From: Brevibacillus laterosporus DSM 25
GTDB lineage: Bacteria > Bacillota > Bacilli > Brevibacillales > Brevibacillaceae
NCBI RefSeq assembly: GCF_002706795.1
Contig: NZ_CP017705.1
Span: 1-64,000, forward strand
Direction: 5' to 3'
DNA: 64,000 nucleotides
A model generated the notes under the pieces. That model saw only the letters and a program-made list of their open reading frames with translations. It searched no databases and had not been told where the DNA came from. Made by a program: the position numbers and the translations under genes. The first letter of the stretch is position 1. The number at the start of each line of letters is the position of its first letter. Of this stretch, positions 5,634 through 57,096 are shown in pieces.

Positions 5634-6656
5634 ATGATTCAAATCCGAAAATATATCGTTAATTTTTGTATGATTGCAATGATTGGAGCAGTGTCAGTGG
5701 GCTGTGGTAGCCCTTCAGAAGAGCAGAAAAGCAGCACAGAAAAAATTTCGATACAAACCATTCCCAAAAATACACCTACCCCTTCTGAGAACGCAAAACC
5801 AGATATGAAGGATACAACTGTTTCTACACAAAAATATACAGATTATAAAGGGCATTCTGTAGTGATTCCTGTTGCACCACAACGCATCATTTTTGCTGGC
5901 GAAACATTTAGTGATTTAGTAGCCCTACAGATAAATGCTGTCGGTACGTCCTCCAATTGGATTACAGACACAGTTTATGAAGATAAAGTCAAACAACACA
6001 CTGTAGATGTCGGCTTTCCAATCAACCTTGAAAAAGCGTTGGGTCTTGAACCAGACTTAATTATTATTGGAAGTACAGATGAAAAGGAATACGAACAGCT
6101 TTCTAAAATTGCACCTACGATTATGTTCGATACCTTTGCACCGATGGACGAACGTATCACTTTATTAGGTAGCATTGTTGGGAAAGAGCAACAAGCAAAG
6201 GAGTGGCTGGCTGGTTACCATGCCAAGGATAACAAGATGTGGGATGAGTTACATGCAGCAGGGATAGGAAATGACGAGACTGCTTCTGTGTTCACCTATT
6301 ATCCTGGAAATCGGTTATTTGTCATGGCAAGCACAGGGCTTTCACAAGTGCTATACCAGCCAAATGGCTTTAAACCAACCGCACCTATTCAAGAAATATT
6401 GAACAATAATACAGGATTTAAAGAAATATCCATGGAGCTTCTGCCAAAATATGCCGGTGATCGGATTTTTATCCTCGTTCCTATCGCTGATGAAGCGAAG
6501 AGATCTACAGATGATTTACTAAAAACAGCAATTTGGAAGGAGCTACCTGGCGTAAAACAGGGACATGTCTATTCCCTTGATATCGTTAAATCTGGTAGTG
6601 ATGCTTTAACAAGAGAATGGCTGATAGAGGAATTACCTAAGCTACTTAAAAAATAA
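5634..6656 (+). CDS. Iron-siderophore ABC transporter substrate-binding lipoprotein
   Basis: A 340-residue extracytoplasmic solute-binding protein of the FepB/FeuA/YfiY type. The N terminus is a lipoprotein signal with lipobox Val-Gly-Cys (Cys24), followed by a Ser/Thr/Pro/Lys-rich linker to about residue 60. The TroA-like fold then starts with HSVVIPVAPQRIIFAGETF and ends in TREWLIEELPKLLKK. It should deliver a ferric siderophore to the two FecCD permeases encoded at 11.5-13.6 kb on the other strand. The closest relative visible in the window is the C-terminal half of the next gene. A strong Fur box upstream fits iron control. The siderophore cannot be named from sequence. Confidence 0.9.
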   Translation: MIQIRKYIVNFCMIAMIGAVSVGCGSPSEEQKSSTEKISIQTIPKNTPTPSENAKPDMKDTTVSTQKYTDYKGHSVVIPVAPQRIIFAGETFSDLVALQINAVGTSSNWITDTVYEDKVKQHTVDVGFPINLEKALGLEPDLIIIGSTDEKEYEQLSKIAPTIMFDTFAPMDERITLLGSIVGKEQQAKEWLAGYHAKDNKMWDELHAAGIGNDETASVFTYYPGNRLFVMASTGLSQVLYQPNGFKPTAPIQEILNNNTGFKEISMELLPKYAGDRIFILVPIADEAKRSTDDLLKTAIWKELPGVKQGHVYSLDIVKSGSDALTREWLIEELPKLLKK

Positions 6657-6787: not shown

Positions 6788-8440
6788 TTGACTCAGCTAA
6801 AATCTACTTGTGTTCCACTCCGTTCCTTGCTTTTTCATCTATCAACTATTGAAATGATCATTAAGCCAGTAGGATGGAAGTCCGAAATTGAAACTTCTCA
6901 ATACCATACCCTGTTCATTTTTAATAAGGGAAAGGGCACTATACATATCGACACGGACGTCTTTCAATTATTGCCTGAAAAATGCTATTCACTTCCCCCG
7001 GGAAGTACGCTTCAGATTGAAAATGGATACGATAGTGAAATTCAATTCTATCAGATTACGTTTACCGTAATCCAAATAGGTGAATCCCAGCATACCTCAT
7101 ATTCTGGAAACATCTTGCCTGACAAGCAGGAAATAGCGGTATACCCGTTCTCACGGTTAAATCGTCTTACCGAAGCATTATATGCGGGAAACAACTATAA
7201 TTCAGAGCTTGAATGGTTTAAACAGCATCTTCATTTTCAGGACTTACTAGGCTTTCTGTTTGAACATAATCTTCATTACAATCAGTCGTTTCATTCAACT
7301 CTCTCAGTAGAAAACACGATTCATTATATGAAAAAAAACTATATGTACAACATTACAGTTAAACAGCTTGCACACCTAGCTAATGTAGCTCCCTGGAAAT
7401 ACACAACGATCTTTCAAGAATTAACGGGGAAAAAACCGCTGGACTTTTTGACCGAGCTACGCATTAACCATTCGAAGGAATTATTAATCCATTCGAACAG
7501 TCCCCTGCGGGAAATTGCTTGCCAAGTCGGATTTTCAGATGAATATTATTTCAACCGCCGCTTTCGTCAAATGACAGGGATTGCTCCTAAGCAGTATGCA
7601 CTTTTGATGCGTCGTGGAAAGGCAGTTAAGGACTGGACAGGTCATGAGGTTAAAATTCCCTCGCATCCCAAACGCATCATTTATCATGGAGAAACATATG
7701 GGGATTTGCTGGCTTTAGGTGTGAAGGCCGTCGGTGGCGGATATGCTTTGATGGATCACCCTATCTATAAAGATCGGGGAATTGAAGTACAAGATATCGG
7801 CTTACCTATTAATCCGGAAAAAACGATGGCTCTCAAACCAGATTTGATTATTTTCGCTAATGCTGACGAAAATGAATATAAAAAGATTTCAAGGATTGCC
7901 CCTACGGTTACATTTAATTCATTTGCACCTCTTGCTGAACGTATTCAAACACTTGGCAGAATACTAGATAAGAGAAAAGAGGCAAAAAAATGGTTAGACG
8001 GGTATGATACAAAAGCTACTAGCATGTGGCAGCAGCTACGTTCCAAAATAAAACCCGGAGAAACCGCCTCCGTCTTTATCTATGAACATGGCAAGCATTT
8101 GTATGTCATGGGTACTACAGGTCTATCATCGGCACTTTATCATCCGCTGGGTTTTCAACCTGTACCCAAAATACAAGAAATCCTGGATTCAGGTTCAGGT
8201 TTTATTGAAATCTCGGAGGAAGCTTTGCCACTATATGCTGGTGATCGGATTTTCATGCTTTTATCAGCTAATGTGGAATCTAAACAAGCGACCGATAAAC
8301 TAATGGACACCCCCTCGTGGAAAAACCTTCCAGCCGTTCGCGATGGATACGTATATCTGATAGAAGCAGAGATATGGAATTATGCGGATGCAATGACCAG
8401 AGAGTGGTTACTTGAATCTCTCCCCCAGCTCATCGTCTAG
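6788..8440 (+). CDS. Btr-like AraC regulator fused to a siderophore-binding domain
   Basis: The 550-residue product has an N-terminal cupin-like sensing region (to about 165), an AraC double helix-turn-helix at about 175-277 (ITVKQLAHLANVAPWKYT and SPLREIACQVGFSDEYYFNR), and a C-terminal TroA-like periplasmic-binding domain at about 285-550 with no signal peptide. B. subtilis Btr has this same layout and activates siderophore uptake genes when it binds the ferric siderophore. The start is TTG with AGGAGGAG upstream. The binding domain is strikingly similar along its whole length to the neighbouring lipoprotein, for example RIIYHGETYGDLLALG versus RIIFAGETFSDLVALQ. It probably senses the same siderophore inside the cell. 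Confidence 0.9.
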   Translation: MTQLKSTCVPLRSLLFHLSTIEMIIKPVGWKSEIETSQYHTLFIFNKGKGTIHIDTDVFQLLPEKCYSLPPGSTLQIENGYDSEIQFYQITFTVIQIGESQHTSYSGNILPDKQEIAVYPFSRLNRLTEALYAGNNYNSELEWFKQHLHFQDLLGFLFEHNLHYNQSFHSTLSVENTIHYMKKNYMYNITVKQLAHLANVAPWKYTTIFQELTGKKPLDFLTELRINHSKELLIHSNSPLREIACQVGFSDEYYFNRRFRQMTGIAPKQYALLMRRGKAVKDWTGHEVKIPSHPKRIIYHGETYGDLLALGVKAVGGGYALMDHPIYKDRGIEVQDIGLPINPEKTMALKPDLIIFANADENEYKKISRIAPTVTFNSFAPLAERIQTLGRILDKRKEAKKWLDGYDTKATSMWQQLRSKIKPGETASVFIYEHGKHLYVMGTTGLSSALYHPLGFQPVPKIQEILDSGSGFIEISEEALPLYAGDRIFMLLSANVESKQATDKLMDTPSWKNLPAVRDGYVYLIEAEIWNYADAMTREWLLESLPQLIV

Positions 8441-35939: not shown

Positions 35940-36646
35940 TCATTTTGCTACAGGAAGAATCTCCTGGGCTGAGAAAGTCTTTGGAATCAGCTTCTTAGCT
36001 GCCATCCAATTAATGACCTGTTGCCATTGGGCTGTATCCTGGCTCCCAAAAGGTTGGCCCTTAGCATCCATCAAGGAAGGCAACGCACTAGGCACCTCTA
36101 ATTTGCAAAAAATTTGCCAACGGTTTGCTCCAATCATGCGAAAATAGTTACGCTGTTCGGTATCCGTAATAAGCAATCCGTCATACGTGCTTACTACGAT
36201 TGGAAAAAAGGTGAACAGTACGACAATTGCTACTTTTCCCGGTAGCTCATAGCAAACCACATCATAAAAACGGGCGAGAGAGCCAAAATAGGAATGGTTT
36301 GCGAGATAATAACATGAGGGTACACTACCTTTTTCACTCCCTCATGTAGATGCATACATATGGCAATTCCCGTTCCTACGAATATCGAGATTACTAGGCC
36401 TACCAACGCTTCCTGTAACGTAATCCACAGATGTATAGTCAACAGCTGACTGCGTATCTCCCAGAAAGCAACAGCAATAACAGAAGGTGGTGGTAAGATG
36501 AATCTAGGTAGCTCAAGTAAGCGACACCCGCCTTCCCATAACAAGAGGAAAGTGCATAAGGAAGCGAAAAACCATCCCACATTCCAGTTCTTTTGCCAGA
36601 CCTTTTTTTTGATCTTTTGACCACCTTGCCTTTGTATTACGGCCAT
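35940..36646 (-). pseudogene. Remnant of thiamine-precursor importer: thiX permease fused by deletion to the tail of thiY
   Basis: From ATG 36646 (overlapping the end of the fused thiE-tenA gene) the reading is an ABC permease with WEGGCRLLELPRFILPPPSV and the helix SQTIPILALSPVFMMWF. At about 36245 a base is lost: restoring GGC gives MMWFGYELPGKVAIVVLFTF and returns to the family, as in the intact ThiX at 60.5 kb. After KLEVPSALPSL the frame runs directly into DAKGQPFGSQDTAQWQQVIN and ends in QEILPVAK, which is the C terminus of a ThiY-type binding protein. A deletion has therefore removed the rest of thiX, any ATPase and most of thiY. Confidence 0.82.
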
Positions 36647-38034
36647 ATCTGTTCCAAATAAGCCATATCCCAAAACAAATACTCCATTTTGCATGTGGCG
36701 ATAAAATGTTGTTTCATTCGAGCAAGCTCCTGTTCGTTACTGTCACGGGCAATCTCATCAAGTACACCTTTGAGCCAGTCTGTCGAGACAGCAAATTCAT
36801 CCGAGCTATACATCCGCACCCACTCTCCATATTTCGGATGATCGATTACTCCCGATTTTTGCGCTAATCTTTTACCGATTTCTTGGTAGCTCCACATGCA
36901 CGGAAGCAAGGCACTCACTACTTCTCCCAAGCTTCCTTGATGAGCTATCTGTAGCATATAGCTTGTATAGGCAAGCATGACGAATGACGGTTCTGCCGTT
37001 TCTAATTCATTGTGGGAAATGCCTAGTCGTTGAGCATATCCGCGATGCAAGGACATCTCCTCTTGTAATGTTGATGTCATGAGCTGAGCAAATCGACCGC
37101 TCCAGTCGATCCGATTGGCCTTCACGCTCGCGATCGCGAACAGTTTTGCATATTCCTGTAAAAAGAGATAATCCTGCTTCATGTAGTGGATAAACGCAGA
37201 GCCCGGTAGATTACCATTAGCAATGCCAGTAATGAAAGGGTGAAGATGTGTCTTTTCCCAAATCGGCTTGGCTTCTGTGTATAAAAGCTCTGTAAAAGAA
37301 GCTACTTCTATTTCTCGCGTACTCATCTGCTTACAGCCCCCTTTTTGAACTCGTGTATAACGGTGATTTTTATGAAAATGATAAATGAAATCCTGCACGG
37401 CTTTTTTCGTATTAGGTGCCTGCGTGATCGCTGAAATGACCGCGATAGCATCTGCTCCACTTTTTCGCAAGTAGCTAGCATGTTCTGGCCTAATTCCGCC
37501 TATAGCTACAATGGGATACCCACCCACAAATTTGCGAATAGACGTAAGTCCATTCGGACCAATTGGCTCCCCAGCGTCCACTTTACTTTTAGATGTATAC
37601 ATAGGACCTACCCCTAAATAGTCAGCTCCATGCGTAAGAGCGATCCGAGCCTCCTCTAAATTACCGGCTGATATTCCAATGATCATCTCAGGAGGAACCA
37701 ATTGTTTAACTTGAGCAAACGGCATATCCTCATGTCCTACGTGAACCCCGTCAGCCTGAACCTTGCAGGCCAAGCTCACATCGTCGTTAATCAGAAAAAT
37801 GGCATTGTATGTATGACATAGCACTTTCATACGGATCGCAATTTTCTCTCTTTGAGTAGCATCGGTGATGGAAACAGCTCCCTTTTCTCGCCACTGAACA
37901 CATCCGACTCCTGCTTGAAGAGCATCTGTCAAAATACGAAACATGTTTTCAACGGAGTTCCCGCAGTCTTGACTACCTATTACCAAATAGATACTCCACC
38001 TTTGATATAAGGTAGCTAGGCGAGCTAGCTTCAT
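36637..38034 (-). CDS. ThiE-TenA fusion: thiamine-phosphate synthase and aminopyrimidine aminohydrolase
   Basis: Residues 1 to about 225 are ThiE, which joins HMP pyrophosphate and thiazole phosphate: [46 protein letters not shown] and PIVAIGGI. From about 240 ([11 protein letters not shown]) to 465 is TenA (thiaminase II), which salvages amino-HMP from thiamine breakdown: [26 protein letters not shown] and the final [10 protein letters not shown]. The joint reads VQKGGCKQM, and its DNA still contains AAGGGGG ten bases before an ATG, a ribosome binding site for a separate tenA. Thus TenA may also be made alone. The gene start overlaps the thiG stop by four bases. Confidence 0.88.
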
Positions 38035-46529: not shown

Positions 46530-48647
46530 CTATTCTATATGTAATTCTATCCCCTGAGGATTAATTACTACATTCTCTCCGTCTTTCTTTACCGTAGCTT
46601 TCCCATTTTGAAAGCTAGATGCCCAATCGTAGTTTAACGGAATGACTACCTGACCTGAAGTATTCACATAGCCAAATTTACCATTCTGCTTAACTACAGC
46701 AAAGCCTTCCGAAAAAGCCAATGCATAATCATACTGATAATCAATCACGATGTTCGTAGCTCCAACTGAATCTAACTCGACAAATCCCCATTTCCCTGCT
46801 CTCTCTCTTGGGATAAGTGTAGGTTGTTTCGGTTTTGAAGTGCTACTTTTAGGCTGAACCCCTACCTTGTCTTTCTCTTGTGTATGTAACGATATTTTAG
46901 TAGGTGTCTCTTTCTCTGCTCTCGTTTTTCGCTGTGCTTCTTCCTTTACTTGCAAATCTTTCTTGTTCTTTTCTGTTTTTACGATAGTTGCTATTTTTTG
47001 AGTTTGTTGCTCATTCGTCTGTTCTTTCTTCCCTTGTTCTGCTTTTGCTTTGGTATCACCCTCAGCTTTCGCTTGCTGCTCTTGCTGTAGGGCTACCTCT
47101 TGTAGTTTTTTAGTAACCTTCCCCTGTTCCAAGGTCTCTTTTTCCAAACGCTCCCGAGCTTCCTTGTCTTGTTTTTCTTTTTCTACATGTTGTTCCATCT
47201 GCATTGCAATGACTGCTTGCGTCTTATTCCTTTCATGGACCCACATAAGCCCACTTACTGCTACGAGGGAAAGGGCAACAGCCATTCCTATTACAAGCTG
47301 TTTTTTACCAATGTTGCTCTGAAATTCCGTTCTATTTGCAGCTGTAGATTGGGATGCTTTCTCCTCTCTAAGAGGCTGTGTTGATTTTATTCTTGTTTCA
47401 AGCTCAGCAATTATCATCCATAAATCTTGAGCTAGAGCATGTTGAGGTTCTAGTTGCTTCTGCACAGTTCGATAGATTTCGATCGCACGTTCCCATTCCC
47501 CTTGTTCTTCCCATTGCTTAGCTAGTTCCATTTTTTTGTATATAACAGGTAAATTCGCAAAATCACCTTGAGCGTTCTCTCCTGCTTTCAAGACTTCTGG
47601 AGCAAGCATTCGTTCAGTTTCAAGGTCAGTTAGAGGAATCACCACTTGCGGTATGGTCGTCTGTATCAGTGATTTATTAGTTATCCTCTGTTTTTGGGAC
47701 CCTGATTCTCCCTCTTCTTCAACATCCATTAATGCGAGTAACCATTCCCCAAATGTTGGGCATTCGTTTAATTCCTTACTATTCCAAGCGCGATCAAGCA
47801 AGGAAGCAATCTCTCCCCCCCAATAATTACGAATAGAATCTAACAATAACGGATATCTTTTTGTGCTGTGAGGAATTTCTTCCGGATTGAAATAACTTTC
47901 TCCCCAAGCTGCCTCCCTGACAGTTTCATCATACCAGCCTACTATCTCCGCTAACAAAATAGCTCCGGAGAAACGATCCGCATATTTACTCCATAAACCT
48001 GTCTGAGAGATTTGTGGGAGAGAATAGCCAGGAGATGCTGCAAATAAGACATCAGGCCGCTCCAACCCCGGTCCAAATAATTGCTCTACGTCCACCAGCT
48101 CTACATAGGAAAAGTCATCTTCTATATGATCCTTGATTAGACCTGGCAAAATTAAGTTGGGACCAGATAAATCACAATGAGCCAATCCTTGTTGTTCCAT
48201 CGTCGATAAAACTTTAGCTAGTGAACGTGCTAAAGTTAAGCAGTCTGCTCGACTTAATGCCCGTTTATCTAATATGACATCCATCCAAGTAGGGCCTTCT
48301 ATCCAGGGCATGACCACAGCATACATCAGATCGCGATGCTTACTTAACATCTCCCCATGTTGCTGAGGTGTTAATATAACTCGATCACATACAGATAGCC
48401 CGGGGAAAGTAGCAAAATCCCTGATTTGTTCAGATAGATAAACCTGCTTCGGATCTTTATATTGATGACGAAACACCTTTAATGCTTTCCACCTAGACGC
48501 TGCTTCTTTTTGGGAAATCAATTGATAGACAATTCCTTGACGCCCTTCCTGACCATAGGGAACATGAGGAGCGACTGGGTGCTCGCCGATTGTATATGTA
48601 GTACTGTGTAGATGAAGCTCTTCCTCTACTCTCGGCTGAAATACCAT
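46530..48647 (-). CDS. Membrane-anchored protein kinase with WG repeats
   Basis: A 705-residue protein. About 1-330 is a protein-kinase-like domain: a Lys in WKALKVFRH (about 57), HCDLSGPN (His about 156) like the HxDxxxxN catalytic loop, and VDVEQLFGP (about 185) in the place of DFG. One membrane helix sits at about 445-468 (LVIGMAVALSLVAVSGLMWV), followed by a highly charged Lys/Glu/Gln coil of about 150 residues. The C terminus (about 617-705) has WG repeats, KWGFVEL and KFGYVNTSG. The kinase faces the cytosol and the WG repeats the outside. It lies next to a WXG100 gene in the T7SS-like locus. The ATG 48647 has GGGAGGAG upstream. Confidence 0.83.
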   Translation of the reverse strand: MVFQPRVEEELHLHSTTYTIGEHPVAPHVPYGQEGRQGIVYQLISQKEAASRWKALKVFRHQYKDPKQVYLSEQIRDFATFPGLSVCDRVILTPQQHGEMLSKHRDLMYAVVMPWIEGPTWMDVILDKRALSRADCLTLARSLAKVLSTMEQQGLAHCDLSGPNLILPGLIKDHIEDDFSYVELVDVEQLFGPGLERPDVLFAASPGYSLPQISQTGLWSKYADRFSGAILLAEIVGWYDETVREAAWGESYFNPEEIPHSTKRYPLLLDSIRNYWGGEIASLLDRAWNSKELNECPTFGEWLLALMDVEEEGESGSQKQRITNKSLIQTTIPQVVIPLTDLETERMLAPEVLKAGENAQGDFANLPVIYKKMELAKQWEEQGEWERAIEIYRTVQKQLEPQHALAQDLWMIIAELETRIKSTQPLREEKASQSTAANRTEFQSNIGKKQLVIGMAVALSLVAVSGLMWVHERNKTQAVIAMQMEQHVEKEKQDKEARERLEKETLEQGKVTKKLQEVALQQEQQAKAEGDTKAKAEQGKKEQTNEQQTQKIATIVKTEKNKKDLQVKEEAQRKTRAEKETPTKISLHTQEKDKVGVQPKSSTSKPKQPTLIPRERAGKWGFVELDSVGATNIVIDYQYDYALAFSEGFAVVKQNGKFGYVNTSGQVVIPLNYDWASSFQNGKATVKKDGENVVINPQGIELHIE

Positions 48648-48776
48648 GAGGGGCTCCTCCCTTTCTTGCATCGTAATATAAAGTAGACAATAGACCTTGG
48701 AACGCAGAAAACAACAACGGCGCGTTCAAAGGAAAATGAACTATTGATTTCAGTGTTAGGTTTTGTCTCACTGAGA

Positions 48777-48813
48777 AAAGGACTAGGCTATCTTTCCCAC
48801 CTAGTCCTTTTTT
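48777..48813 (-). terminator. Hairpin between the WXG100 and kinase genes
   Basis: AAAAGGACTAGG pairs perfectly with CCTAGTCCTTTT. On the minus strand the T tail after it is short (TTTTC), so it may be a partial terminator that raises the WXG100 transcript over the downstream kinase. Confidence 0.65.
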
Positions 48814-48828
48814 GCTTCTGTTGCTTTA

Positions 48829-49095
48829 TTAAGAATCCGCCTGACGGAACTTCGTCGCAATAGCATGTAACTCATGTGATATACTTTCAAGCAGTAGTAC
48901 AAAACCAGTCATTTGCCTGTTCGCTTCCTGAAATTCTTGGAAGAATTTTTGCTTCGCCATCCCGTCCCACTGGCCTTCCATTTGGTGAATTTGTTGGTTT
49001 AGACGATCAATCACCTGCTGACTTTGTTCCTTGCTTTGCTGAAATTGATTAGCTACTTCATCCACTTGATCAGGCGAAATTAAAATGCGTGACAT
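48829..49095 (-). CDS. WXG100-family secreted protein (EsxA-like)
   Basis: An 88-residue all-helical protein with the WXG turn as WDG at residues 43-45 and helices on both sides rich in Gln and Glu (EVANQFQQSKEQSQQVIDRL). It has no signal peptide, as expected for substrates of type VII secretion. The C terminus LHAIATKFRQADS keeps the general YxxxD/E-like position only loosely, with no Tyr. The ATG has GGGGGGAAAAGG upstream. It follows the large ATPase gene by 150 bases, with a hairpin between. Confidence 0.9.
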   Translation of the reverse strand: MSRILISPDQVDEVANQFQQSKEQSQQVIDRLNQQIHQMEGQWDGMAKQKFFQEFQEANRQMTGFVLLLESISHELHAIATKFRQADS

Positions 49096-49215
49096 GTTCC
49101 TTTTCCCCCCAAGTCGTTCACATTCTCTTTTGTCCTATTGTAGCCTAGAGTATTTTTAGAAACAATTCCCAATTTTTCAGTAAGCCGATTTAGAAAGAAA
49201 CACCTATGTTCACTT

Positions 49216-49254
49216 GTAGTTAAAAAGGACTTTCGTCTTAGTTTTTAACTATAA
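49216..49254 (-). terminator. Hairpin overlapping the end of the T7SS ATPase gene
   Basis: TAGTTAAAAAGGAC pairs with GTC...GTTTTTAACTA. On the minus strand it overlaps the ATPase stop at 49245 and has a T-rich descending arm, so it may end or attenuate the long upstream transcript. Confidence 0.5.
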
Positions 49255-52200
49255 ATATTATTGTATAAATCTCTAGGCCTACAAACATCCTCCCGTAACC
49301 ATTTTTGATTGATCGTTACAATGAAATCTTGTAGGGATCGCTCCTCATCAAAGGGCACAGCAGCTTTGACCCGATGATAACGCCTTTTAGCAAAGTAACC
49401 TTGACCCGGTGGCAACATTTTGTTGAAGGTAGCATGTGGGTAATGACTAGCTTCAGTCGATGGGATTTTAAAAAAGGCTAGATCACTTGCATCAATACTG
49501 CCAAATAAAAAACCTGTTTGCATGTTTTTAATCTCGGATAACCAATCGTTACTGCTAAATGGAAAATCAGCTGGTACCCCAGAGATAATTACATACAGAT
49601 CACGGTTTCTGCCTTGTCGAATTAACTGGGCCAATTGATCCTTTATCTGATAATCAGTTGTCTCTTTAAAAAATAAATCTGCATCATCAATTACCAGCAA
49701 AAGAGCTGGCTCCTTATCGTTTGAAAGTTGTAATGCCTCAACTGTTTTTGATGATTCTACCTGTTTAAGCAATTCATCTTTCCACATCTGATTAGAAATC
49801 TGTTGTTCTCTCACAGGAGATTGATTTTTTAGATGCTCACCATGATGCTGACGCATTTTTATTTTAGCGCTTAAAGTAGTAAGCAACTCTCCAAGCTCGC
49901 TCTCTCTAGTGGCTCTCCCCTGTATGTGTGGCAAATTATTTAGAGACATCAAGTTCATGGAAGAAGCTCGGTAATCAATGAAGTAAATTTCCAGGTCTTG
50001 TGGAGAAACCTGATGGCATAGAGATAATACCCATGTCATCAAAAAGGAGGTCTTTCCCCCCTCCATCGGACTACCTACCACAAAAAAAGGGCCTTCTTTT
50101 AAATCTACTTCAAAGGGAGTTAAATCATCTACATAAATACCAACAGGTACTCTGAGTGAACGAGAAGGTGAGGATATCGTAATATCCGGTATCGTAGAGA
50201 TAGAGGATTTATTACTAGTGACAGGTTCTATATCAAATAACTCCTCCAATAAAACCACTTCTGGTAGGGACACAATTTCTTTTGGACGCTCCCCTTTCCA
50301 AGCAATGCTCATCTGCTCCATTACGTTACGAAGTCGAACGGAGCGTTGCATATCGTCTTCGCCAGCTATAGGAAAAGCAGTCTGAAACTCCAGTGGTGGT
50401 AATTGCCCTTTCACTAGCCCTCTTCCTACTGGTAAATGGACAGGTGGTTTTGTGGGACGACCCACCGCAAAATAATAGTCGCTTGGATCAGATAGCTCAA
50501 AGGCAACTCCCAGAGAAAAGTTACTTCGTATTTTCTCCAAAATATCAGTAATCCGATTAGCCGTCACTACGAAGGAAAGACCTACGCTTCCCCCTTCTCT
50601 TAACAGCTGCTCCAGTTGATCATTCTCATAGGCATACTGATTTCGGAAGTTTAAATAACCATCTATGTACACGACAATTCTAGGCACGGTAATCCCCGTA
50701 GACATTTGATACGCTCGGAGTGTTTTCACGCCGCTATTTGCAAGTAACTCACGGCGCCTACTTACTTCCTGAAGCAAATAATGAAATAACCGTTTGATTT
50801 TATCTGATTCATTGTCCAAAATGACGGAGCCAACATGAGGTAAGTACGAAAAATCTCGCAACGATCGTCCAAAATCCAACAAATATAAGTGAAGGTGTTC
50901 CGGAGAATGACGAGTCGTCAAAGAAAATAGGAAGGTCTGCAAAAAAGTAGTCTTCCCTGTTCCTGGCATACCATAGATAGGTAAATGCCCATCCTCTAGT
51001 GATACCAGCAATGGCTCTTGCCGCTGGTTCGCCAAATCGTCTACCAAGCCTACAATCGCTGAAAGATTTGGTACACCGGCTACCCACTCCCTGCCATTCC
51101 AGCCATATGTACAATCAGAAATATCCTCCAAAGAAAGCTGTTGAGGTAATGGAGGAAGCCACGGGCCGGGCAAGCGACTGATCCCTTCTTGCTCTGCTAT
51201 TCCTGCCAGATATTCCATCAGGGCCTGAAGTTGCTTTTTTTGTTTTCTGGTACGATGTATGTTTACATTTTCTTTTATCTCACATTTCGTACGTTTTCCA
51301 CTTAATGAAATCGCATAAATCTCCAGCTCATTTTCGTTACGCTTTTGATCTGCATGATAAGGCGCACCACTCCAAGCAAACTGGAGCAAATCAAATTCCT
51401 CATTACTGCCCACCTGTAAGTAGCCACGCCCAGGCGTTGTGATCCATGCTGCATCCGGTATCTTTAGCATTTCCCGACTGTCTGCATCATCCTGAACTCT
51501 TAGACAAATACGAAAACGGGCATTACTCCATATCTTATCATCGACAACACCACCGGGTTTCTGAGTAGCTAGGATTAAATGGACTCCTAGTGTTCTACCA
51601 ATGGTTGCAATTGATATTAATTCATTCATAAACTCCGGGTGCTCTTTTTTTAGTTGAGCAAACTCGTCAATAATAATAACCAAGTGAGGCAGAGGATGAG
51701 TCGTTCGCCATGCTGTTTCATAATACTCATCAATGTGCTGAAGATCTCCCGCTTCATTCAAGATTTTTTGCCTACGAATTAACTCGGCTCGTAACGAAAC
51801 CATTGCTCTTTCTAAGAGTCGGTCATCCAGATTGGTAATAGAGCCAACTACATGTGGTAAATCTCTAAACGTGTTAGACATTCCCCCGCCTTTATAGTCA
51901 ATCAATAAAAAAGCCATCTCATGAGGATGATAGTGAACTGCTAGTGACGCCACGATGGATTGAATAACCTCGCTTTTTCCAGAACCTGTTGTACCAGCTA
52001 TTAATCCATGTGGACCATGTCCACGTCGCTCTATTTTGTCATGTAGATTTAGTAGAATTTTTTTCCCACCCGTTCGCACTCCAACTGGAACTGGTAATGA
52101 TTCAGGGAACCGATTCCCTCGCCAGAGAGCAGCTACATCCAAATCTTCTATTTTTTCAATACCCAAAAGGTCAAACAACGGTAATAGCTGAGGAATTTCT

Positions 52201-53465
52201 GCTGCCGTAGAACGCTTTACCTTCATACTTGCCATCATTCGCGCAGCATGCTCCACTGTATCTAAAGGGAGAGCGTCTACTGTAAATGCAATCTCTCCAT
52301 CTCCAATGCCAGTAGCATCACCTGTCACAGTTTCCTTACAGGTACCACGGTCACCCTGCACTTCAACAATTAACTGACACTGCATAGGCAACGAGTCTTT
52401 ACTATCCGCCAGTAAAATCGTACATGCACCAATTGCTTCTGCCTCTTTTAAAAGTAATGGCAAAATAGGCTCGTCCTCAATTAGATGGGGAGCTGACAGG
52501 ATAAACACCCAACAAGGTAGCTCTACCGCTTTACGAAAATCAGTAGCCCTCGTCATTTTTCGTCGGTTTAACTGACTGTACAAAAAGTCTAGTAGTTGAT
52601 GAGCGTAGCCTTTTTCCTGGGCAACAAACCGCAATGTCTGTTCATCATTCCAAGTATGCGGTAACCAGCGTAGCCATTTCCATTGCTCCTCTTCCCATTC
52701 TGGATAAAAGGTAGCGATTTTCACTTCATCAGGAGAGTGGTGTGTAACCATCTGCAATACCATAACCCTGATAGCATTCAGAACGGCTTCCTGCTCACCT
52801 ACCACGCCTATGACTTTAGATTGAAAGAGGGGGAGTTGGATAGGAACCGACTCAACCCTTCCAAAGGTTCGAGACAAATTTTGAGCTTCTTCAACTAACG
52901 GATCTGTCTCATAGCCTTCCTGTTTTGGCACTATAATCTGATAGGTAGCTGGTAGCGTTCCTTCTCCCATACGCAAACGTAAAAAATCCTCGTCACGTGT
53001 GGATCTCTCCCATAAAGAGCTGCTTCTCTCTTCTATTCGCTGTATACACTTCCGTACAGACGGGTTCAATTCGTGCATAATGGTTCGCTGTTCCTCTTGT
53101 AACTCTATTAACTCCCGTCTATGTTTCTCCAACACTTCTTGGTACTGATTGGTTCGTGTTTCTACCTGTCTACGATAATTCCTCTTGTTATAAAGATAGG
53201 TAAAGACCGGAACCGTATATGAAACAATCATAGCGCTCATAAAAATCATCTGAAATACGAAAAAATTCTTGTTTCCCGTATTCATTCTCGATCCGATATA
53301 TAAATAAGCAAAAAGCGAAATTCCCGTTATAATGATGGGAATTAAGATAGAAATGATAGAGAAAGCAGGCGGTTGGGGAACAAGAGGTGGTCGATGGATT
53401 TCTACTGTTTGTTTGGGTAATGTACGCTTTAAGCGTGGTGATCGCTGAAAATAGTCATAGGCCAT
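49245..53465 (-). CDS. EccC/EssC-type T7SS ATPase (three FtsK/SpoIIIE domains)
   Basis: A 1406-residue membrane-bound motor. Two helices near the N terminus (about 35-58 and 68-92) precede a coiled segment, then three ATPase modules. Their Walker A motifs are GTTGSGKS (about 490), GMPGTGKT (about 832) and GSPMEGGKTS (about 1130). Walker B motifs are VIIIDEFAQL (about 600), VVYIDG (about 930) and LLVIDDADLF (about 1255). There is no FHA region before the first helix, unlike YukBA/EssC of Bacillus and Staphylococcus, so it resembles actinobacterial EccC in layout. It should drive export of WXG100 proteins. The ATG follows GGGGAGGGGG. Confidence 0.92.
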   Translation of the reverse strand: MAYDYFQRSPRLKRTLPKQTVEIHRPPLVPQPPAFSIISILIPIIITGISLFAYLYIGSRMNTGNKNFFVFQMIFMSAMIVSYTVPVFTYLYNKRNYRRQVETRTNQYQEVLEKHRRELIELQEEQRTIMHELNPSVRKCIQRIEERSSSLWERSTRDEDFLRLRMGEGTLPATYQIIVPKQEGYETDPLVEEAQNLSRTFGRVESVPIQLPLFQSKVIGVVGEQEAVLNAIRVMVLQMVTHHSPDEVKIATFYPEWEEEQWKWLRWLPHTWNDEQTLRFVAQEKGYAHQLLDFLYSQLNRRKMTRATDFRKAVELPCWVFILSAPHLIEDEPILPLLLKEAEAIGACTILLADSKDSLPMQCQLIVEVQGDRGTCKETVTGDATGIGDGEIAFTVDALPLDTVEHAARMMASMKVKRSTAAEIPQLLPLFDLLGIEKIEDLDVAALWRGNRFPESLPVPVGVRTGGKKILLNLHDKIERRGHGPHGLIAGTTGSGKSEVIQSIVASLAVHYHPHEMAFLLIDYKGGGMSNTFRDLPHVVGSITNLDDRLLERAMVSLRAELIRRQKILNEAGDLQHIDEYYETAWRTTHPLPHLVIIIDEFAQLKKEHPEFMNELISIATIGRTLGVHLILATQKPGGVVDDKIWSNARFRICLRVQDDADSREMLKIPDAAWITTPGRGYLQVGSNEEFDLLQFAWSGAPYHADQKRNENELEIYAISLSGKRTKCEIKENVNIHRTRKQKKQLQALMEYLAGIAEQEGISRLPGPWLPPLPQQLSLEDISDCTYGWNGREWVAGVPNLSAIVGLVDDLANQRQEPLLVSLEDGHLPIYGMPGTGKTTFLQTFLFSLTTRHSPEHLHLYLLDFGRSLRDFSYLPHVGSVILDNESDKIKRLFHYLLQEVSRRRELLANSGVKTLRAYQMSTGITVPRIVVYIDGYLNFRNQYAYENDQLEQLLREGGSVGLSFVVTANRITDILEKIRSNFSLGVAFELSDPSDYYFAVGRPTKPPVHLPVGRGLVKGQLPPLEFQTAFPIAGEDDMQRSVRLRNVMEQMSIAWKGERPKEIVSLPEVVLLEELFDIEPVTSNKSSISTIPDITISSPSRSLRVPVGIYVDDLTPFEVDLKEGPFFVVGSPMEGGKTSFLMTWVLSLCHQVSPQDLEIYFIDYRASSMNLMSLNNLPHIQGRATRESELGELLTTLSAKIKMRQHHGEHLKNQSPVREQQISNQMWKDELLKQVESSKTVEALQLSNDKEPALLLVIDDADLFFKETTDYQIKDQLAQLIRQGRNRDLYVIISGVPADFPFSSNDWLSEIKNMQTGFLFGSIDASDLAFFKIPSTEASHYPHATFNKMLPPGQGYFAKRRYHRVKAAVPFDEERSLQDFIVTINQKWLREDVCRPRDLYNNIYS

Positions 53466-53491
53466 TCCTGCTCCCCCTCCCCTGTATTAGT

Positions 53492-53905
53492 TTATAAGGT
53501 CTTCCACACATACCCTTTTGACTCGCTCTTGTTTTTGTCTTTTTTCTCATTTCGAGTGTGTACATGTTCATCTTCAGGTATTTGTTGTTGGTATAAAGAA
53601 CGCCAACCTTCAATTGTTTGGCCTTTGTTACCAGTAGAAAAGTTACGCTGTACTCTCAGATATGCTCCAGACCTGACACCTAGCTCGAACAATGTGGCCT
53701 CCGATGAAAGAATTTTCCATTCATGTTCTCCCACTTTCACTTCCAGCATATAGGTTACGTCAGTCACTCTTTGAGACTCTCCCTCTTTTATCATGCGAGA
53801 AATCTTTTCAGCAATCATTTGACAAGGAATATGAGTCGGCAATTCAAAATCCGGCCACTTACTCTTATCAGCATTTGTTACAATTGTCACAATGATTTTA
53901 TCCAT
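53492..53905 (-). CDS. YukD/EsaB-like ubiquitin-fold protein with basic tail
   Basis: A 137-residue protein. The first ~85 residues look like the YukD/EsaB ubiquitin-like domain of type VII systems (IIVTIVTNADKSKWPDFELP; LFELGVRSGAYLRVQ). The last ~50 residues are a charged tail (HVHTRNEKKDKNKSESKG) not present in YukD, which is only about 80 residues. Position between the ATPase and the next gene supports the call; sequence similarity is weak. The gene follows its neighbour closely, with GGTGGG before the ATG. Confidence 0.7.
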   Translation of the reverse strand: MDKIIVTIVTNADKSKWPDFELPTHIPCQMIAEKISRMIKEGESQRVTDVTYMLEVKVGEHEWKILSSEATLFELGVRSGAYLRVQRNFSTGNKGQTIEGWRSLYQQQIPEDEHVHTRNEKKDKNKSESKGYVWKTL

Positions 53906-53921
53906 TTTCCCACCATTTTTA

Positions 53922-54737
53922 CTAGATCGTCTGAACGACTAGCTTTTCTAAAATGATCTCCTGTAAAACCTCATCCATTTCCATATGAGAGCTAGGAGAA
54001 ATACATACCCAGTCCTCTCGTTCCTTAACAAATAGACGGATTAACCAATTTGCAATACTAGAAGTAAGAAACGTCATTCCATTTAAGCTCCATTCATTTT
54101 GATGCCATGACATTGTGATTAATTGCCCCTCGCACCATTGAGCTTTTAAGGAGTGAGCAAACGCCTCTGCTGCATCTTTATGGCACTCATAATCTAATAT
54201 AGTGGCACAAATCTCATTAATAGAAGCTGTTTCTACCGTTCCTCTAATTTGTTGAAAAATAGCATTTGGTAACTCAATAGATGGAACCATTACTTTTTCC
54301 TCAGGGTTTTTTCTGATTCGATTACACATTGTTTTACTGGCTTGTATGGGTTCACCTAAAGCTCGTAACTCATATACATTTTTACCACCCAATGCCGCTA
54401 TCTTCTCAACTACAACTTCTCGGTCGAAATGAAAGTACCCCTCATATGCTTCTTTATGTTTATCAGTGTAACGAAAGTAACAGCACGTTGTCGCATGTCC
54501 ACATGGGGCTACAAGTGAATTCACGATCTCATTTATGTACAGGCCTGTCTCATCCTCAAATATATACCCCTTTTGTAATAGCTCTGTCTTTATTAGGTCC
54601 CATTCCTCTTGCAAGTCTTCAGTTAGATATCCAGCATAAGGCTCTGCTATACCCAGTACTTGATCAGCACCAGTTAGGCATGCTAAAAAGTATAGCTGTT
54701 TATCCGTGATTGAAATAGATTCAATCGGATTTTTCAT
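53922..54737 (-). CDS. T7SS-locus protein, possibly EspG-like
   Basis: A 271-residue soluble protein without membrane segments. The N-terminal pattern SITDKQLYFLACLTGADQVL, then DLQEEWDLIKTELLQKGYIF and INEIVNSLV, recalls the start of EspG proteins, the chaperones of ESX secretion substrates; this is a resemblance of layout, not a firm match. A cluster of Cys/His (APCGHATTCCYF, about 78-89) is unusual. The C-terminal part (WLIRLFVKEREDWVCISPS) is also EspG-like in being a strand-rich domain. The ATG follows AAGGAGG. Confidence 0.5.
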   Translation of the reverse strand: MKNPIESISITDKQLYFLACLTGADQVLGIAEPYAGYLTEDLQEEWDLIKTELLQKGYIFEDETGLYINEIVNSLVAPCGHATTCCYFRYTDKHKEAYEGYFHFDREVVVEKIAALGGKNVYELRALGEPIQASKTMCNRIRKNPEEKVMVPSIELPNAIFQQIRGTVETASINEICATILDYECHKDAAEAFAHSLKAQWCEGQLITMSWHQNEWSLNGMTFLTSSIANWLIRLFVKEREDWVCISPSSHMEMDEVLQEIILEKLVVQTI

Positions 54738-54764
54738 ACTAGCCTCCTTACAATGCTATTGATT

Positions 54765-55649
54765 TTATCGCGCAAGCCAAGCGAACCACTCTCTTTTGTG
54801 TCCCGTCTTATCGTATGGGGTAAACGAGTCTGTCTGATTCCAGCTAACATCCAATAGTGCAATATCATCGCTAAGCGGACTGTCACTAGCTTGAAGAATC
54901 ATGGACTGTAGCTCGTTGTCTGTCGGGAGCGGATAGCATTTATCTAATGTGGCTAAGCCATCTGTATAGGCTATCATTCGTGTAAAACAATGTTGTCCAG
55001 CCAAACTGGATTGAAATAAATGTGGTTTTCCTCCCACAGGCCCATGTAATGTTGACCAACGCTCCTGTGTATTACAGGTTGCTTGTAAGCATTCTGTTAT
55101 TTCCTGTTCTTGACTAAATAATCGTAACCGCAAATCCCCCTGCCAAGCGAATAGAATTCTTCCTTTTGGAAAGGAATGCGAGGGTAAATCAATGCGTCCG
55201 CAAATATACATTGTTTCACTACCATGTGATCGCTTCGCTTCTAATACATCTCTGAGCAAGCCTTTAATATCTGAAGGTAATGGATGATTGACTACGATTC
55301 TATTGGTTACAGTGGTTAACGCTTGTAAATGTAATTCCAACTGTTGGAGAAGAAACTCTTCCTCCTGCTCTTTATTAATGACATCGGAAGCAAGCCAATC
55401 CAGAAGTGCATCCCCTAGCATTTTTGCTGCGAGTTCCCCACAGTAAGAAAGTGACACGCCATCACACAATGCAAATAAAAAAGATTGCTCGTTTCTAGCA
55501 AACGTAAGATAATCTTGCCCCTTCTCTTGGGCATGTTGCGTTTCCGTAGCACGGGCGTACGCGTATCTCCAGACAAATTGTTCCGATTCTCTCGTTACAG
55601 ACAGCTCTGTATGTTGATGTATTTTTCCATAACGATAGGCTTGTTTCAC
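54765..55649 (-). CDS. PP2C-family protein phosphatase
   Basis: A 294-residue PPM/PP2C phosphatase. Metal-binding motifs are visible: LCDGVSLSYCGELAAKML (Asp63), IAYTDGLATL (about 226) and SDDIALLDV (about 257). There is no membrane helix or extra domain. It would reverse phosphorylation by a Ser/Thr kinase, most simply the WG-repeat kinase at the other end of the locus. The start is GTG behind AGGTGATG, and the gene begins 16 bases after the vWA gene, so they are cotranscribed. Confidence 0.9.
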   Translation of the reverse strand: MKQAYRYGKIHQHTELSVTRESEQFVWRYAYARATETQHAQEKGQDYLTFARNEQSFLFALCDGVSLSYCGELAAKMLGDALLDWLASDVINKEQEEEFLLQQLELHLQALTTVTNRIVVNHPLPSDIKGLLRDVLEAKRSHGSETMYICGRIDLPSHSFPKGRILFAWQGDLRLRLFSQEQEITECLQATCNTQERWSTLHGPVGGKPHLFQSSLAGQHCFTRMIAYTDGLATLDKCYPLPTDNELQSMILQASDSPLSDDIALLDVSWNQTDSFTPYDKTGHKREWFAWLAR

Positions 55650-55665
55650 ATCGCATCACCTGTCT

Positions 55666-56418
55666 TTAACGAACGGGGGTTGCTGCCGACATTTGAAACC
55701 CTAAAGACACCAATTCTGGACTGGTAGCCGGAAACATTAGCAACGCACCCTTTTTTAATTGATACATGGACTCACTCATCATTTCACGATAGCTCTCCGG
55801 TAAAACAGAAGACATCGAACGTAGTCTATTGGCATGTTCATCTCTCATGATTGTATCTGGCATGATTCCATCCCAACGCTTCACATCGGCCATCTCATCA
55901 TCGCATACCTCTTCGGATATAAAAATATTTTCAACAAGCACATGTCCATCGGGAACTGCCATTTGCATGATTCGTTTCACCACAGGCTCGGGATCCTCCC
56001 CGGTTGCTGCACCATCAGTCATATGACAGATCAGAGGAGCCGGAGAATCTTGCAGAAATGGTAGCTCTTCTAGCAATAATTTTTCAACCTGTTTAAACGC
56101 TTTGGCCATGTCTGTCAATCTACGTGGGCTTATTTCAGGCAACTTCCCCAACCGGGCTACTTCATCTATTCCTCGGATTCCATCCAACAAATCATATACT
56201 TCATCGCTGTATGCTAATATTGCTATACGATAACGTGGCGACATACGAGTTCCTTTAGTAGAACGAAAAATCATCTGTCGAATGGTAGCAGATAATGCCT
56301 CCATCACCACATCAATCCTGCGTTTATCTCCCATTGGTAGACACATGGAACCACTCACATCAATCAGATAAATGATAAGAGCTGGGGTTCGATGTGTCGC
56401 TGGTAAATCATAACTCAT
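55666..56418 (-). CDS. vWA-domain protein (TerY-like)
   Basis: A 250-residue protein that is almost entirely one von Willebrand A domain. The MIDAS site is complete: DVSGS at residues 20-24, a Thr in the RRLTDMAKAF region, and the Asp of MTDGAATGED at about 132. Stand-alone vWA proteins of this kind (TerY type) occur with PP2C phosphatases and kinases in signalling triads. It is followed directly by the PP2C gene. The ATG has AAGGAG upstream. Confidence 0.88.
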   Translation of the reverse strand: MSYDLPATHRTPALIIYLIDVSGSMCLPMGDKRRIDVVMEALSATIRQMIFRSTKGTRMSPRYRIAILAYSDEVYDLLDGIRGIDEVARLGKLPEISPRRLTDMAKAFKQVEKLLLEELPFLQDSPAPLICHMTDGAATGEDPEPVVKRIMQMAVPDGHVLVENIFISEEVCDDEMADVKRWDGIMPDTIMRDEHANRLRSMSSVLPESYREMMSESMYQLKKGALLMFPATSPELVSLGFQMSAATPVR

Positions 56419-56532
56419 AACCGATTCTCCTTATCCTCCTGTTGTAAAAAAAACGGGGCAGAAGCAGTTTGTTTACTTTACTGCGTGTAGAGTCAAAATA
56501 ATCGGCTTCCGACTTAGTAGTAGTGGTAGTAT

Positions 56533-57096
56533 TTAGGACCGTGGAATTTTTTCACTTACCTTAACCAATCCAGATACAGAAGGCTCAACCTGATCCTCTT
56601 CATTTGTATCCACGCCATATCCATCATGTAAAGAAGCATCAAGAAATTGTATATTTTCCCGTACAAACTGAAAGCGTGCCATTGGCAACTGTTCATTTGT
56701 ACCCAATGTAGCTAAATGTCGTTGCATATCCTGCTGCGGAAAAAATCGTGATTCGCTTGTTACTGCCAGCACGGCTCCCTGTTCTCTCAATTGATGTCGA
56801 ATATGCTCCATTGTAATCGTTAATCGTTCTGCACTTTCTCTATCAATCTGTTGGAAGCGTTCGGCAGACTCTACCAGACGCTTAGCTAAATCGTTGGAGT
56901 GCGCTTGTAGTTGCTCCATTAGAGCACGGACCGCACGCCAATTATCCTCCAACTGTGATTGTTGCCTAACTTCCCAGGTAAGACTTTCCATTGCATGATG
57001 CAAACGTCCTTCTATTTCACTCCACTCCTGTGCAGCTCGTTTGTATTCATGCCCCAATTCTTGCAACAGATGCGGATGTACCAGTATTCGCGACAT
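56533..57096 (-). CDS. WXG100-like protein with C-terminal extension
   Basis: A 187-residue helical protein. The N-terminal ~100 residues form a WXG100-like hairpin with Trp41 in ESLTWEVRQQSQLEDNWRAV; the exact WXG is WEV. The remaining ~85 residues are a charged extension with no known domain (QQDMQRHLATLGTNEQLPMA; ENIQFLDASLHDGYGVD). It starts MSRILVHPHL, almost the same as the MSRILISPDQ of the other WXG protein. It is the first gene of the T7SS-like operon and may be a substrate or structural partner. The ATG has GAGGGGATAAG upstream. Confidence 0.75.
   Translation of the reverse strand: MSRILVHPHLLQELGHEYKRAAQEWSEIEGRLHHAMESLTWEVRQQSQLEDNWRAVRALMEQLQAHSNDLAKRLVESAERFQQIDRESAERLTITMEHIRHQLREQGAVLAVTSESRFFPQQDMQRHLATLGTNEQLPMARFQFVRENIQFLDASLHDGYGVDTNEEDQVEPSVSGLVKVSEKIPRS

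What the first reader, a model, noticed from the sequence alone, without database searches (positions are those of the whole stretch)
46530..57096. Type VII-like secretion locus joined to a kinase / PP2C / vWA signalling triad
In one direction the locus encodes a long WXG-like protein, a vWA protein, a PP2C phosphatase, a possible EspG-like protein, a ubiquitin-fold protein, a triple-ATPase EccC/EssC, a WXG100 protein and a membrane kinase. Spacing is tight from vWA to ATPase. Type VII secretion in Bacillota normally uses EsaA, EssA, EssB and EsaB around EssC; none of EsaA, EssA or EssB is here. Stand-alone vWA, PP2C and kinase genes together are known as a signalling triad (TerY-P type), and type VI secretion uses a kinase/phosphatase pair for post-translational control. 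A type VII machine with a similar switch, in a spore-former, is to my knowledge poorly described. That part is inference.
Basis: partly seen in the sequence, partly recalled or inferred. Interest (0 to 1): 0.88.

Follow-up and report, generated by a model that had tools for sequence, protein, structure and literature searches.

The report
Type VIIc secretion with kinase switch
This is a protein-secretion machine of a kind described in 2024, with its own kinase, phosphatase and metal-binding scaffold protein; the comparison here ties part of that signalling set to a known bacterial stress-signalling module and points to one further recurrent, probably secreted, partner protein.

Summary
In detail: eight co-directional genes at 46530-57096 encode a kinase, WXG100, FHA-less EssC ATPase, YukD-like, EspG-like, PP2C, vWA and a longer WXG-like protein; the genome has no EssA or EssB and no convincing EsaA. 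It is not a new kind: it has all seven components of T7SSc (TscA-TscG; Garrett et al. 2024). The triad is no chance neighbour: in 398 Bacilli genomes, 30 of 30 matches to the vWA family lie beside an EssC-like ATPase; in loci read later 3 of 51 do not. Catalytic residues are kept in 49 of 50 kinase, 40 of 40 phosphatase and 51 of 51 vWA sequences. Beyond that paper's text: (1) the vWA (9 of 9 members) and, more weakly, the kinase resemble the TerY-P triad; the phosphatase is not shown to. (2) The first gene's 187-aa EspC-like product recurs, is present in 34 of 34 loci with TscG, and the same domain heads larger, toxin-like proteins in relatives. (3) Six genomes of one family keep the ATPase core without the module. 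(4) A related FHA-type system fuses a kinase to the vWA. The mechanism, a phosphorylation gate on secretion, is inference.

The parts
56533..57096 (-). EspC-like (long WXG-like) 187-aa protein; recurrent eighth component, probable secreted substrate or partner
   Evidence: PF10824 32.4 bits; a long protein with this domain in 24 of 24 clade-1 loci; same domain heads 354- to about 1690-aa proteins in relatives
55666..56418 (-). TscE, TerY-like vWA protein with intact MIDAS
   Evidence: VWA_2; PADLOC TerY E 2.5e-20; D20, S22, S24, T134, D135 in 51 of 51, T or S at 102
54765..55649 (-). TscF, PP2C phosphatase, GTG start
   Evidence: PP2C_2 E 0.0011, below cut-off; five Asp positions kept in 40 of 40
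53922..54737 (-). TscG, EspG-fold chaperone-like protein
   Evidence: fold search: first 13 hits EspG, model pLDDT 63
53492..53905 (-). TscB, YukD/EsaB-like ubiquitin-fold protein with C-terminal tail
   Evidence: PF08817 27.5 bits, cut-off 27
49245..53465 (-). TscC, EssC/EccC-type ATPase without N-terminal FHA
   Evidence: TIGR03928 1236 bits, cut-off 778; three FtsK/SpoIIIE stretches; in the T7SSc clade, SH-aLRT 100
48829..49095 (-). TscA, WXG100 protein
   Evidence: PF06013 71 bits, TIGR03930 77.9 bits
46530..48671 (-). TscD, Ser/Thr kinase domain, one hydrophobic segment near residues 459-478 (by eye), coiled region, two WG-repeat stretches
   Evidence: K65, H165, D167, N172, D194 in 49 of 50 relatives; PF14903 77.5 bits

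Best explanation
The locus is a T7SSc secretion system. Shown by sequence: ATPase TscC, WXG100 TscA and ubiquitin-fold TscB form the export core; TscG has the EspG chaperone fold (model of moderate confidence); TscD, TscF and TscE are a kinase, phosphatase and TerY-like metal-binding vWA with their catalytic or metal-site residues intact. Inferred: TscD senses the cell envelope through its outside part and phosphorylates a cytoplasmic target; TscE, the best kept accessory protein, is the scaffold or relay that touches the ATPase complex; TscF resets it; so secretion is gated by phosphorylation. Inferred: TscG delivers the EspC-like 187-aa protein, perhaps with TscA, to TscC for export.
For: Membership: all seven components of T7SSc, and EssA and EssB absent, EsaA not convincing. 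Link of triad and machine: 30 of 30 vWA-family places in 398 Bacilli genomes lie beside an EssC-like ATPase; over all loci read, 48 of 51 with the vWA also show the ATPase, on the same strand in 48 of 48, 329-7009 bp apart. Intact residues: kinase 49 of 50 (the gap falls to one of two pieces of a split gene in L041), phosphatase 40 of 40, vWA 51 of 51. TscE keeps 55-83% identity to the window's copy in the relatives aligned, TscG 17-61% in a similar set. A kinase is fused to the TscE-type vWA in a related system whose ATPase, where scanned (L057), bears an FHA domain. The part of TscD beyond the membrane segment differs by group (WG repeats, TPRs, coiled, none) while the kinase is kept, as expected of a sensor. 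TscG and a long EspC-like protein are both present in 34 of 82 loci, both absent in 46; 2 have only the latter.
Against: No FHA or other known phospho-reader was found in the eight proteins, and no phosphorylation target is known. Six genomes of one family have a 51-55% identical ATPase with no TscD, E, F or G match anywhere, so the module is not needed for every T7SSc core. Clade 2 has the kinase and vWA but no TscF in the stretch read (10 of 10 loci), and none in the one genome searched whole. TscG/EspC-like co-occurrence rests on only 3 independent contrasts and is not significant. The genome shows no other WXG100-like protein except a coiled-coil false match, so what it secretes besides TscA and the 187-aa protein is unknown; LXG proteins were not searched for. 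L083, L070 and L072 have the vWA without an ATPase in the 20-kb stretch.
Confidence: 0.6

Rival explanations
1. TscD replaces EssB: a bitopic kinase-fold hub that holds the ATPase complex together, where phosphorylation is secondary or only an assembly step.
For: Similar topology to EssB is stated in PMC11217815; PMC13037476 (passages) aligns TsxD models with the bitopic EssB/TraF arrangement. Clade 2 lacks the phosphatase in the stretches and the one genome searched, odd for a reversible switch.
Against: Catalytic residues kept in 49 of 50, whereas PMC11217815 calls EssB a pseudokinase; the PMC13037476 passage excepts one Paenibacillus TscD from the shared arrangement; six genomes keep the ATPase core with no TscD match.
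Confidence: 0.22
2. The triad is a resident stress or defence signalling module of TerY-P type that merely shares the operon and does not act on secretion.
For: TscE matches PADLOC TerY in 9 of 9 members; TerY-P sets occur with restriction systems (PMC11090510, passages; PMC4978471, passages). Three of 51 loci with TscE showed no ATPase in the stretch read.
Against: In the 398 Bacilli genomes the TscE family was not found away from the ATPase: 30 of 30 places; a mere passenger would be.
Confidence: 0.1
3. An ordinary T7SSb whose EsaA, EssA and EssB genes lie elsewhere in the genome.
For: One weak EsaA-model hit.
Against: No EssA, no EssB; the weak hit is below cut-off and the same model rings in three other control genomes; the ATPase lacks FHA and groups in a separate clade.
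Confidence: 0.02

Closest known systems
T7SSc (TscA-TscG), Garrett, Higginson and Palmer 2024, PMC11217815
   Same: All seven components, no FHA on the ATPase, no EsaA/EssA/EssB; B. brevis and Paenibacillus are named hosts (sections seen)
   Different: An extra EspC-like 187-aa gene not in the seven-component list; the words TerY, EspC and fusion do not occur in the paper's main text. Its figures and supplements were not seen.
TerY-P triad (TerY vWA, PP2C, kinase with zinc ribbon; Anantharaman et al. 2012, not read; described in PMC11090510 and PMC4978471, passages)
   Same: vWA homologous over 221 columns (hhalign E 1.1e-19), kinase over 186 columns (E 1.3e-10); vWA and PP2C genes adjacent in the same order (gene labels of 95 and 96 by eye). 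Both papers report WXG/FtsK-type genes next to TerY-P sets.
   Different: Kinase has a membrane segment and further part; no zinc ribbon found; PP2C not specifically related (E 0.068)
T7SSb (EsxA, EsaB, EssB, EssC, EsaA, EssA)
   Same: WXG100, YukD-like protein and EssC-type ATPase
   Different: No FHA on the ATPase, no EssA or EssB and no convincing EsaA
T7SSa / ESX chaperone EspG and the EspC family
   Same: TscG model matches EspG; first gene matches PF10824 EspC
   Different: No search was made for EccB, EccD, EccE or MycP; no sequence match of the TscG profile to any PDB chain

Membership tests
T7SSc | EssC/EccC-type ATPase without N-terminal FHA | tested here: met
   No FHA among the 25 of 42 Pfam families shown; TIGR03928 above cut-off; N-terminus read
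T7SSc | One WXG100 TscA and one YukD-like TscB | tested here: met
T7SSc | Membrane kinase TscD with conserved active site | tested here: met
   49 of 50 keep K, H, D, N, D; the membrane segment was read by eye, no predictor run
T7SSc | vWA TscE and PPM phosphatase TscF | tested here: met
   PP2C Pfam score below cut-off
T7SSc | EspG-like TscG | tested here: met
   Fold search; model confidence only moderate
T7SSc | No further T7SSa/T7SSb components in the genome | tested here: inconclusive
   EssA, EssB absent, EsaA not convincing; EccB/D/E, MycP not searched
T7SSc | ATPase phylogenetically nearer T7SSa EccC than T7SSb EssC | not tested
   No EccC rows in the tree; EccC-model scores 507 (cut-off 509) and 339 (cut-off 347)
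T7SSb | EssB, EssA, EsaA present | tested here: not met
T7SSb | FHA domains on EssC | tested here: not met
TerY-P triad | TerY-like vWA | tested here: met
   PADLOC TerY 9 of 9 members; in 398 Bacillota genomes the TerY model at E<=1e-8 matched 7: two at full length, five at their TscE (it rings in 0 of the 14 control genomes)
TerY-P triad | PP2C of the TerY-P branch | tested here: inconclusive
   hhalign E 0.068; PADLOC PP2C weak in 3 of 7
TerY-P triad | Kinase with C-terminal zinc ribbon | tested here: not met
   TscD continues into a hydrophobic segment, coil and WG repeats; no zinc ribbon in the Pfam scan

The most novel reading that the evidence does not exclude
T7SSc arose by joining a minimal type VII core to a TerY-P-type signalling module whose kinase exchanged its nucleic-acid or metal-binding tail for a membrane segment and a changeable outside sensor. 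The module sits on two distinct ATPase lineages (FHA-less T7SSc, and an FHA-bearing one with a kinase-vWA fusion, possibly an unnamed subtype) and was lost once with the core kept. TscG and the long EspC-like protein form an EspG-type chaperone/substrate pair in Bacillota.
Probability: 0.5. Interest if true: 0.62.

Novelty: new member of a known kind. Interest (0 to 1): 0.42.

Why it matters
How type VII secretion is switched on is an open question (general knowledge). Here a core with the switch, a close core that seems to have lost it, and a fused version exist in related genomes, so the role of phosphorylation can be tested by comparison and by gene removal. Linking the module to TerY-P would connect a secretion machine with stress and phage-defence signalling.

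Tried and rejected
Tried without use: the search for related loci with the single ATPase gave only 2 loci; an alignment would have served better. The TscD model was too poor to use (pLDDT 38). The TscE and TscG profiles match no PDB chain; the TscD profile matches mostly scattered kinases, weakly; the TscF profile matches one PP2C family weakly. The third WXG100 hit in the genome is an SbcC-like coiled coil (label by eye) and was dropped as a false match. (TscG in nine genomes) had no positive control; the question was asked again with three control genomes. My regular expression for the FHA motif found nothing because its spacing was too short; the motif (GR, SxxH, NG) was then read by eye in the sequences. 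Promoter matches are fewer than in shuffles (16 against a mean of 23.7) and say nothing.

Rejected: a chance cluster; T7SSb with parts elsewhere; 'a full TerY-P triad', since the PP2C link failed and no zinc ribbon was found. PADLOC does not favour the TerY-P kinase for TscD: its PD-T4-6 models score better in the window (E 1.3e-7 against 9.7e-5 for STK_OB) and match 8 of 8 members against 7 of 8.

Rows dropped or not read: the tree used 57 of 75 ATPase rows (18 dropped by hand before building, most as near-copies, judged by eye); ORFs under 880 aa and locus L008 were left out before that. Of the 93 ATPase places besides the window's, 60 were read, among them all 35 with a best match of 44% identity or more. 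Of 143 genomes with TscE, 20 places were read, chosen mainly for odd or low-scoring cases, so they are not a random sample; that call's own list of places was cut.
Full report
WHAT IS THERE. Eight genes on the - strand, 57096 down to 46530, in the order EspC-like, vWA, PP2C, EspG-like, YukD-like, ATPase, WXG100, kinase. The family scans bear out the labels, PP2C and kinase below the Pfam cut-off. The neighbours look unrelated (by eye: LysR-type regulator and lipoate-protein ligase downstream, a permease upstream); I recognised no toxin-like gene next to the locus. The genome is one contig of 5.4 Mb; the nearest named locus is Brevibacillus laterosporus, with an ATPase 84% identical. Profiles for EssA and EssB find nothing while B. 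subtilis rings; the EsaA profile gives one sub-threshold hit. A WXG100 search of the genome finds the two proteins of this locus and one coiled-coil false match.

IT IS T7SSc. PMC11217815 (Garrett et al. 2024; part 1 of section 6, sections 9, 12, 13, 15, 16 and found passages seen) names T7SSc in Paenibacillus, B. anthracis and B. brevis, with TscA (WXG100), B (YukD-like), C (ATPase without FHA), D (membrane kinase, active site kept), E (vWA), F (PPM phosphatase) and G (EspG-like). Each was found here. TscG was checked by a model made from three sequences (pLDDT 63): the first 13 PDB matches are EspG chains, E 1.6e-7 to 3.4e-4, and the next is E 0.16. Among the papers listed in my searches (two searches listed 20 of 37 and 15 of 23) the word T7SSc occurs in that paper only.

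THE TRIAD IS NOT A CHANCE NEIGHBOUR. In 398 Bacilli genomes, 88 have an EssC-like ATPase at E<=1e-60, at 94 places. A profile of nine TscE proteins matches 30 places in 27 genomes at E<=1e-10, and all 30 lie in loci whose ATPase was found (matched by me from the coordinates). Of the 36 T7SSc-grade ATPase places in that sample, window included, 25 have kinase, vWA and phosphatase, 4 have kinase and vWA only, 6 have none and 1 (L041) has a split kinase only. Over all loci read, 51 have TscE; 48 of these show the ATPase within the stretch, always on the same strand, 329-7009 bp apart; three (L070, L072, L083) do not. In Paenibacillaceae (family of G367; name from memory of the group) 143 of 394 genomes have TscE.

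THE ENZYMES LOOK ACTIVE. Across relatives the kinase keeps K65, H165, D167, N172 and D194 in 49 of 50 sequences; two of the 50 are the pieces of one split gene, to which the gap belongs. The phosphatase keeps its five Asp positions in 40 of 40, and the vWA its D-x-S-x-S and T, D in 51 of 51, with T or S at position 102. TscE is the best kept accessory protein: 55-83% identity to the window's copy against 17-61% for TscG over a similar, not identical, set. Beyond the membrane segment TscD differs by group: WG repeats in the window and L010, TPRs in L034 (Pfam), long coiled regions in Paenibacillus and nothing in L035 and L038 (by eye).

RELATION TO TerY-P. PADLOC's TerY model matches the window's TscE at E 2.5e-20 and all 9 members of the alignment. 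Searched in 398 Bacillota genomes at E<=1e-8, the same model matches 7 genomes: two at full length (320 and 366 bits), each followed by ORFs that read as PP2C and kinase (by eye), and five T7SSc genomes at their TscE (40-44 bits); no other protein reached that level. Profile comparison gives E 1.1e-19 over 221 columns for TscE/TerY and E 1.3e-10 over 186 columns for TscD/TerY-P kinase, against E 2.7e-6 over 59 columns for TscD and a PknB-like kinase domain (a single sequence, so not a like-for-like control). Against this reading: PADLOC gives TscD better scores with PD-T4-6 kinase models than with STK_OB; TscF and the TerY-P PP2C give E 0.068, worse than TscF with a PP2C of an FHA-type T7SS locus, E 1.4e-4; and no zinc ribbon was found on TscD. 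So the vWA is TerY-like, the kinase probably, the triad as a whole is not shown to be TerY-P. WXG/FtsK genes next to TerY-P sets have been reported in H. pylori and in type III-A CoCoNuTs (PMC4978471 and PMC11090510, passages).

AN EIGHTH COMPONENT. The 187-aa protein is an EspC-family protein. A profile of its first 105 residues, built from 11 proteins, finds a long protein (140 aa or more) of this kind in 24 of 24 clade-1 loci and, at the head of proteins of about 800 to 1690 aa (some cut by the end of the stretch), in 10 of 10 clade-2 loci; in 0 of 4 of family f12, 0 of 6 of family f18, 0 of 2 of L073/L078 and 0 of 11 loci of the kinase-vWA group. The L035 one carries RHS repeats. Over all 82 loci, 34 have both TscG and such a protein, none has TscG alone, 46 have neither, and two have only the latter: L041 (354 aa, with a nucleotidyltransferase domain) and L060 (two proteins, 19-20 bits only). 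The profile also scores TscA weakly, so the cut is partly one of length, and only 3 independent contrasts exist, not enough for significance. In L015 the tscG and EspC-like genes are 6 bp apart. The reading that TscG is its chaperone follows the known EspG role and is inference.

LOSS AND FUSION. On the ATPase tree (quick method, 57 rows, long-branch warnings printed) the T7SSc rows form one group of 30 with support 100; the six f18 rows without the module sit inside clade 1 (99), next to Brevibacillaceae (94), which argues for loss. In those six genomes TscE, TscG, TscF and TscD (control genomes ringing) gave no match. A separate group of 11 loci has a TscE fused to an N-terminal kinase: the fused ORF is 536-563 aa in 10 of 11, whose list was cut, shows ten open frames of 544-573 aa. 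TscF is found in 10 of these 11 and TscD in 8. In L057 the fused kinase is of the common Ser/Thr type (PF00069 E 1.1e-47) and the ATPase bears an FHA domain (PF00498 E 4.5e-15); L069 and L077 show the same motif by eye; the others were not scanned and four have only part or none of the ATPase in the stretch (L067, L068, L070, L072, with shorter ORFs also in L071, L074, L076). The six ATPase rows of this group join with support 89, and with L054/L056 at 100. In PMC11217815 the term vWA occurs twice in the main text, both in the T7SSc passage; its supplements could not be read, so I do not claim that the fused type is unnamed.

HOW IT PROBABLY WORKS. Inference from the above: envelope sensing by TscD, phosphorylation of TscE or of the ATPase complex, reset by TscF, giving gated export of TscA and of the EspC-like protein brought by TscG. 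The lack of a phospho-reader here, against the FHA domain on the ATPase of the fused type, suggests that TscE itself relays the signal in T7SSc. I saw no experiment on a T7SSc triad gene in what I read.

VERDICT. Observation correct; kind already published; the additions (TerY link, EspC-like partner, loss and fusion) are modest but testable.

Noticed in passing
L057, L067-L072, L074-L077: EssC-type systems with a Ser/Thr kinase fused to the TscE-type vWA (10 of 11 loci); FHA on the ATPase found by Pfam in L057, by eye in L069 and L077; possibly an unnamed T7SS subtype.
   Followed up: partly
L011-L014, L017, L032 (family f18): T7SSc-type ATPase with TscB and (in 5 of 6) TscA beside it; no match for kinase, vWA, phosphatase or TscG in the genome. 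L012 and L014 have a signal-peptide protein (weak lipase match for the L012 one) and lipoprotein-like genes downstream (by eye).
   Followed up: partly
L041 (genome G276, same family as the window): Decayed-looking T7SSc: kinase gene in two pieces, shortened ATPase, no TscB, E, F or G in the stretch; a WXG-headed nucleotidyltransferase protein is next to it.
   Followed up: partly
L083: Clade-2 T7SSc genes A, E, B, D, G and a 1689-aa EspC-headed gene without an ATPase in the 20-kb stretch; a lipoate-ligase-like gene is close by, as near the window locus (by eye).
   Followed up: partly
L035:315-8155: Clade-2 T7SSc with a run of membrane and pilin-like genes upstream, perhaps Tad-type (by eye).
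   Followed up: no
window 36637-38034: One ORF that reads as a thiamine-phosphate synthase (ThiE) fused to a TenA-like thiaminase II domain (by eye, recalled families).
   Followed up: no
window 6788-8440 and 5634-6656: AraC-type regulator fused to a FecB-like iron-siderophore binding domain beside a stand-alone binding protein; resembles B. subtilis Btr (recalled, by eye).
   Followed up: no
L009 (genome G329): The tool reports one in-frame TAG within the ATPase match of this same-genus relative.
   Followed up: no
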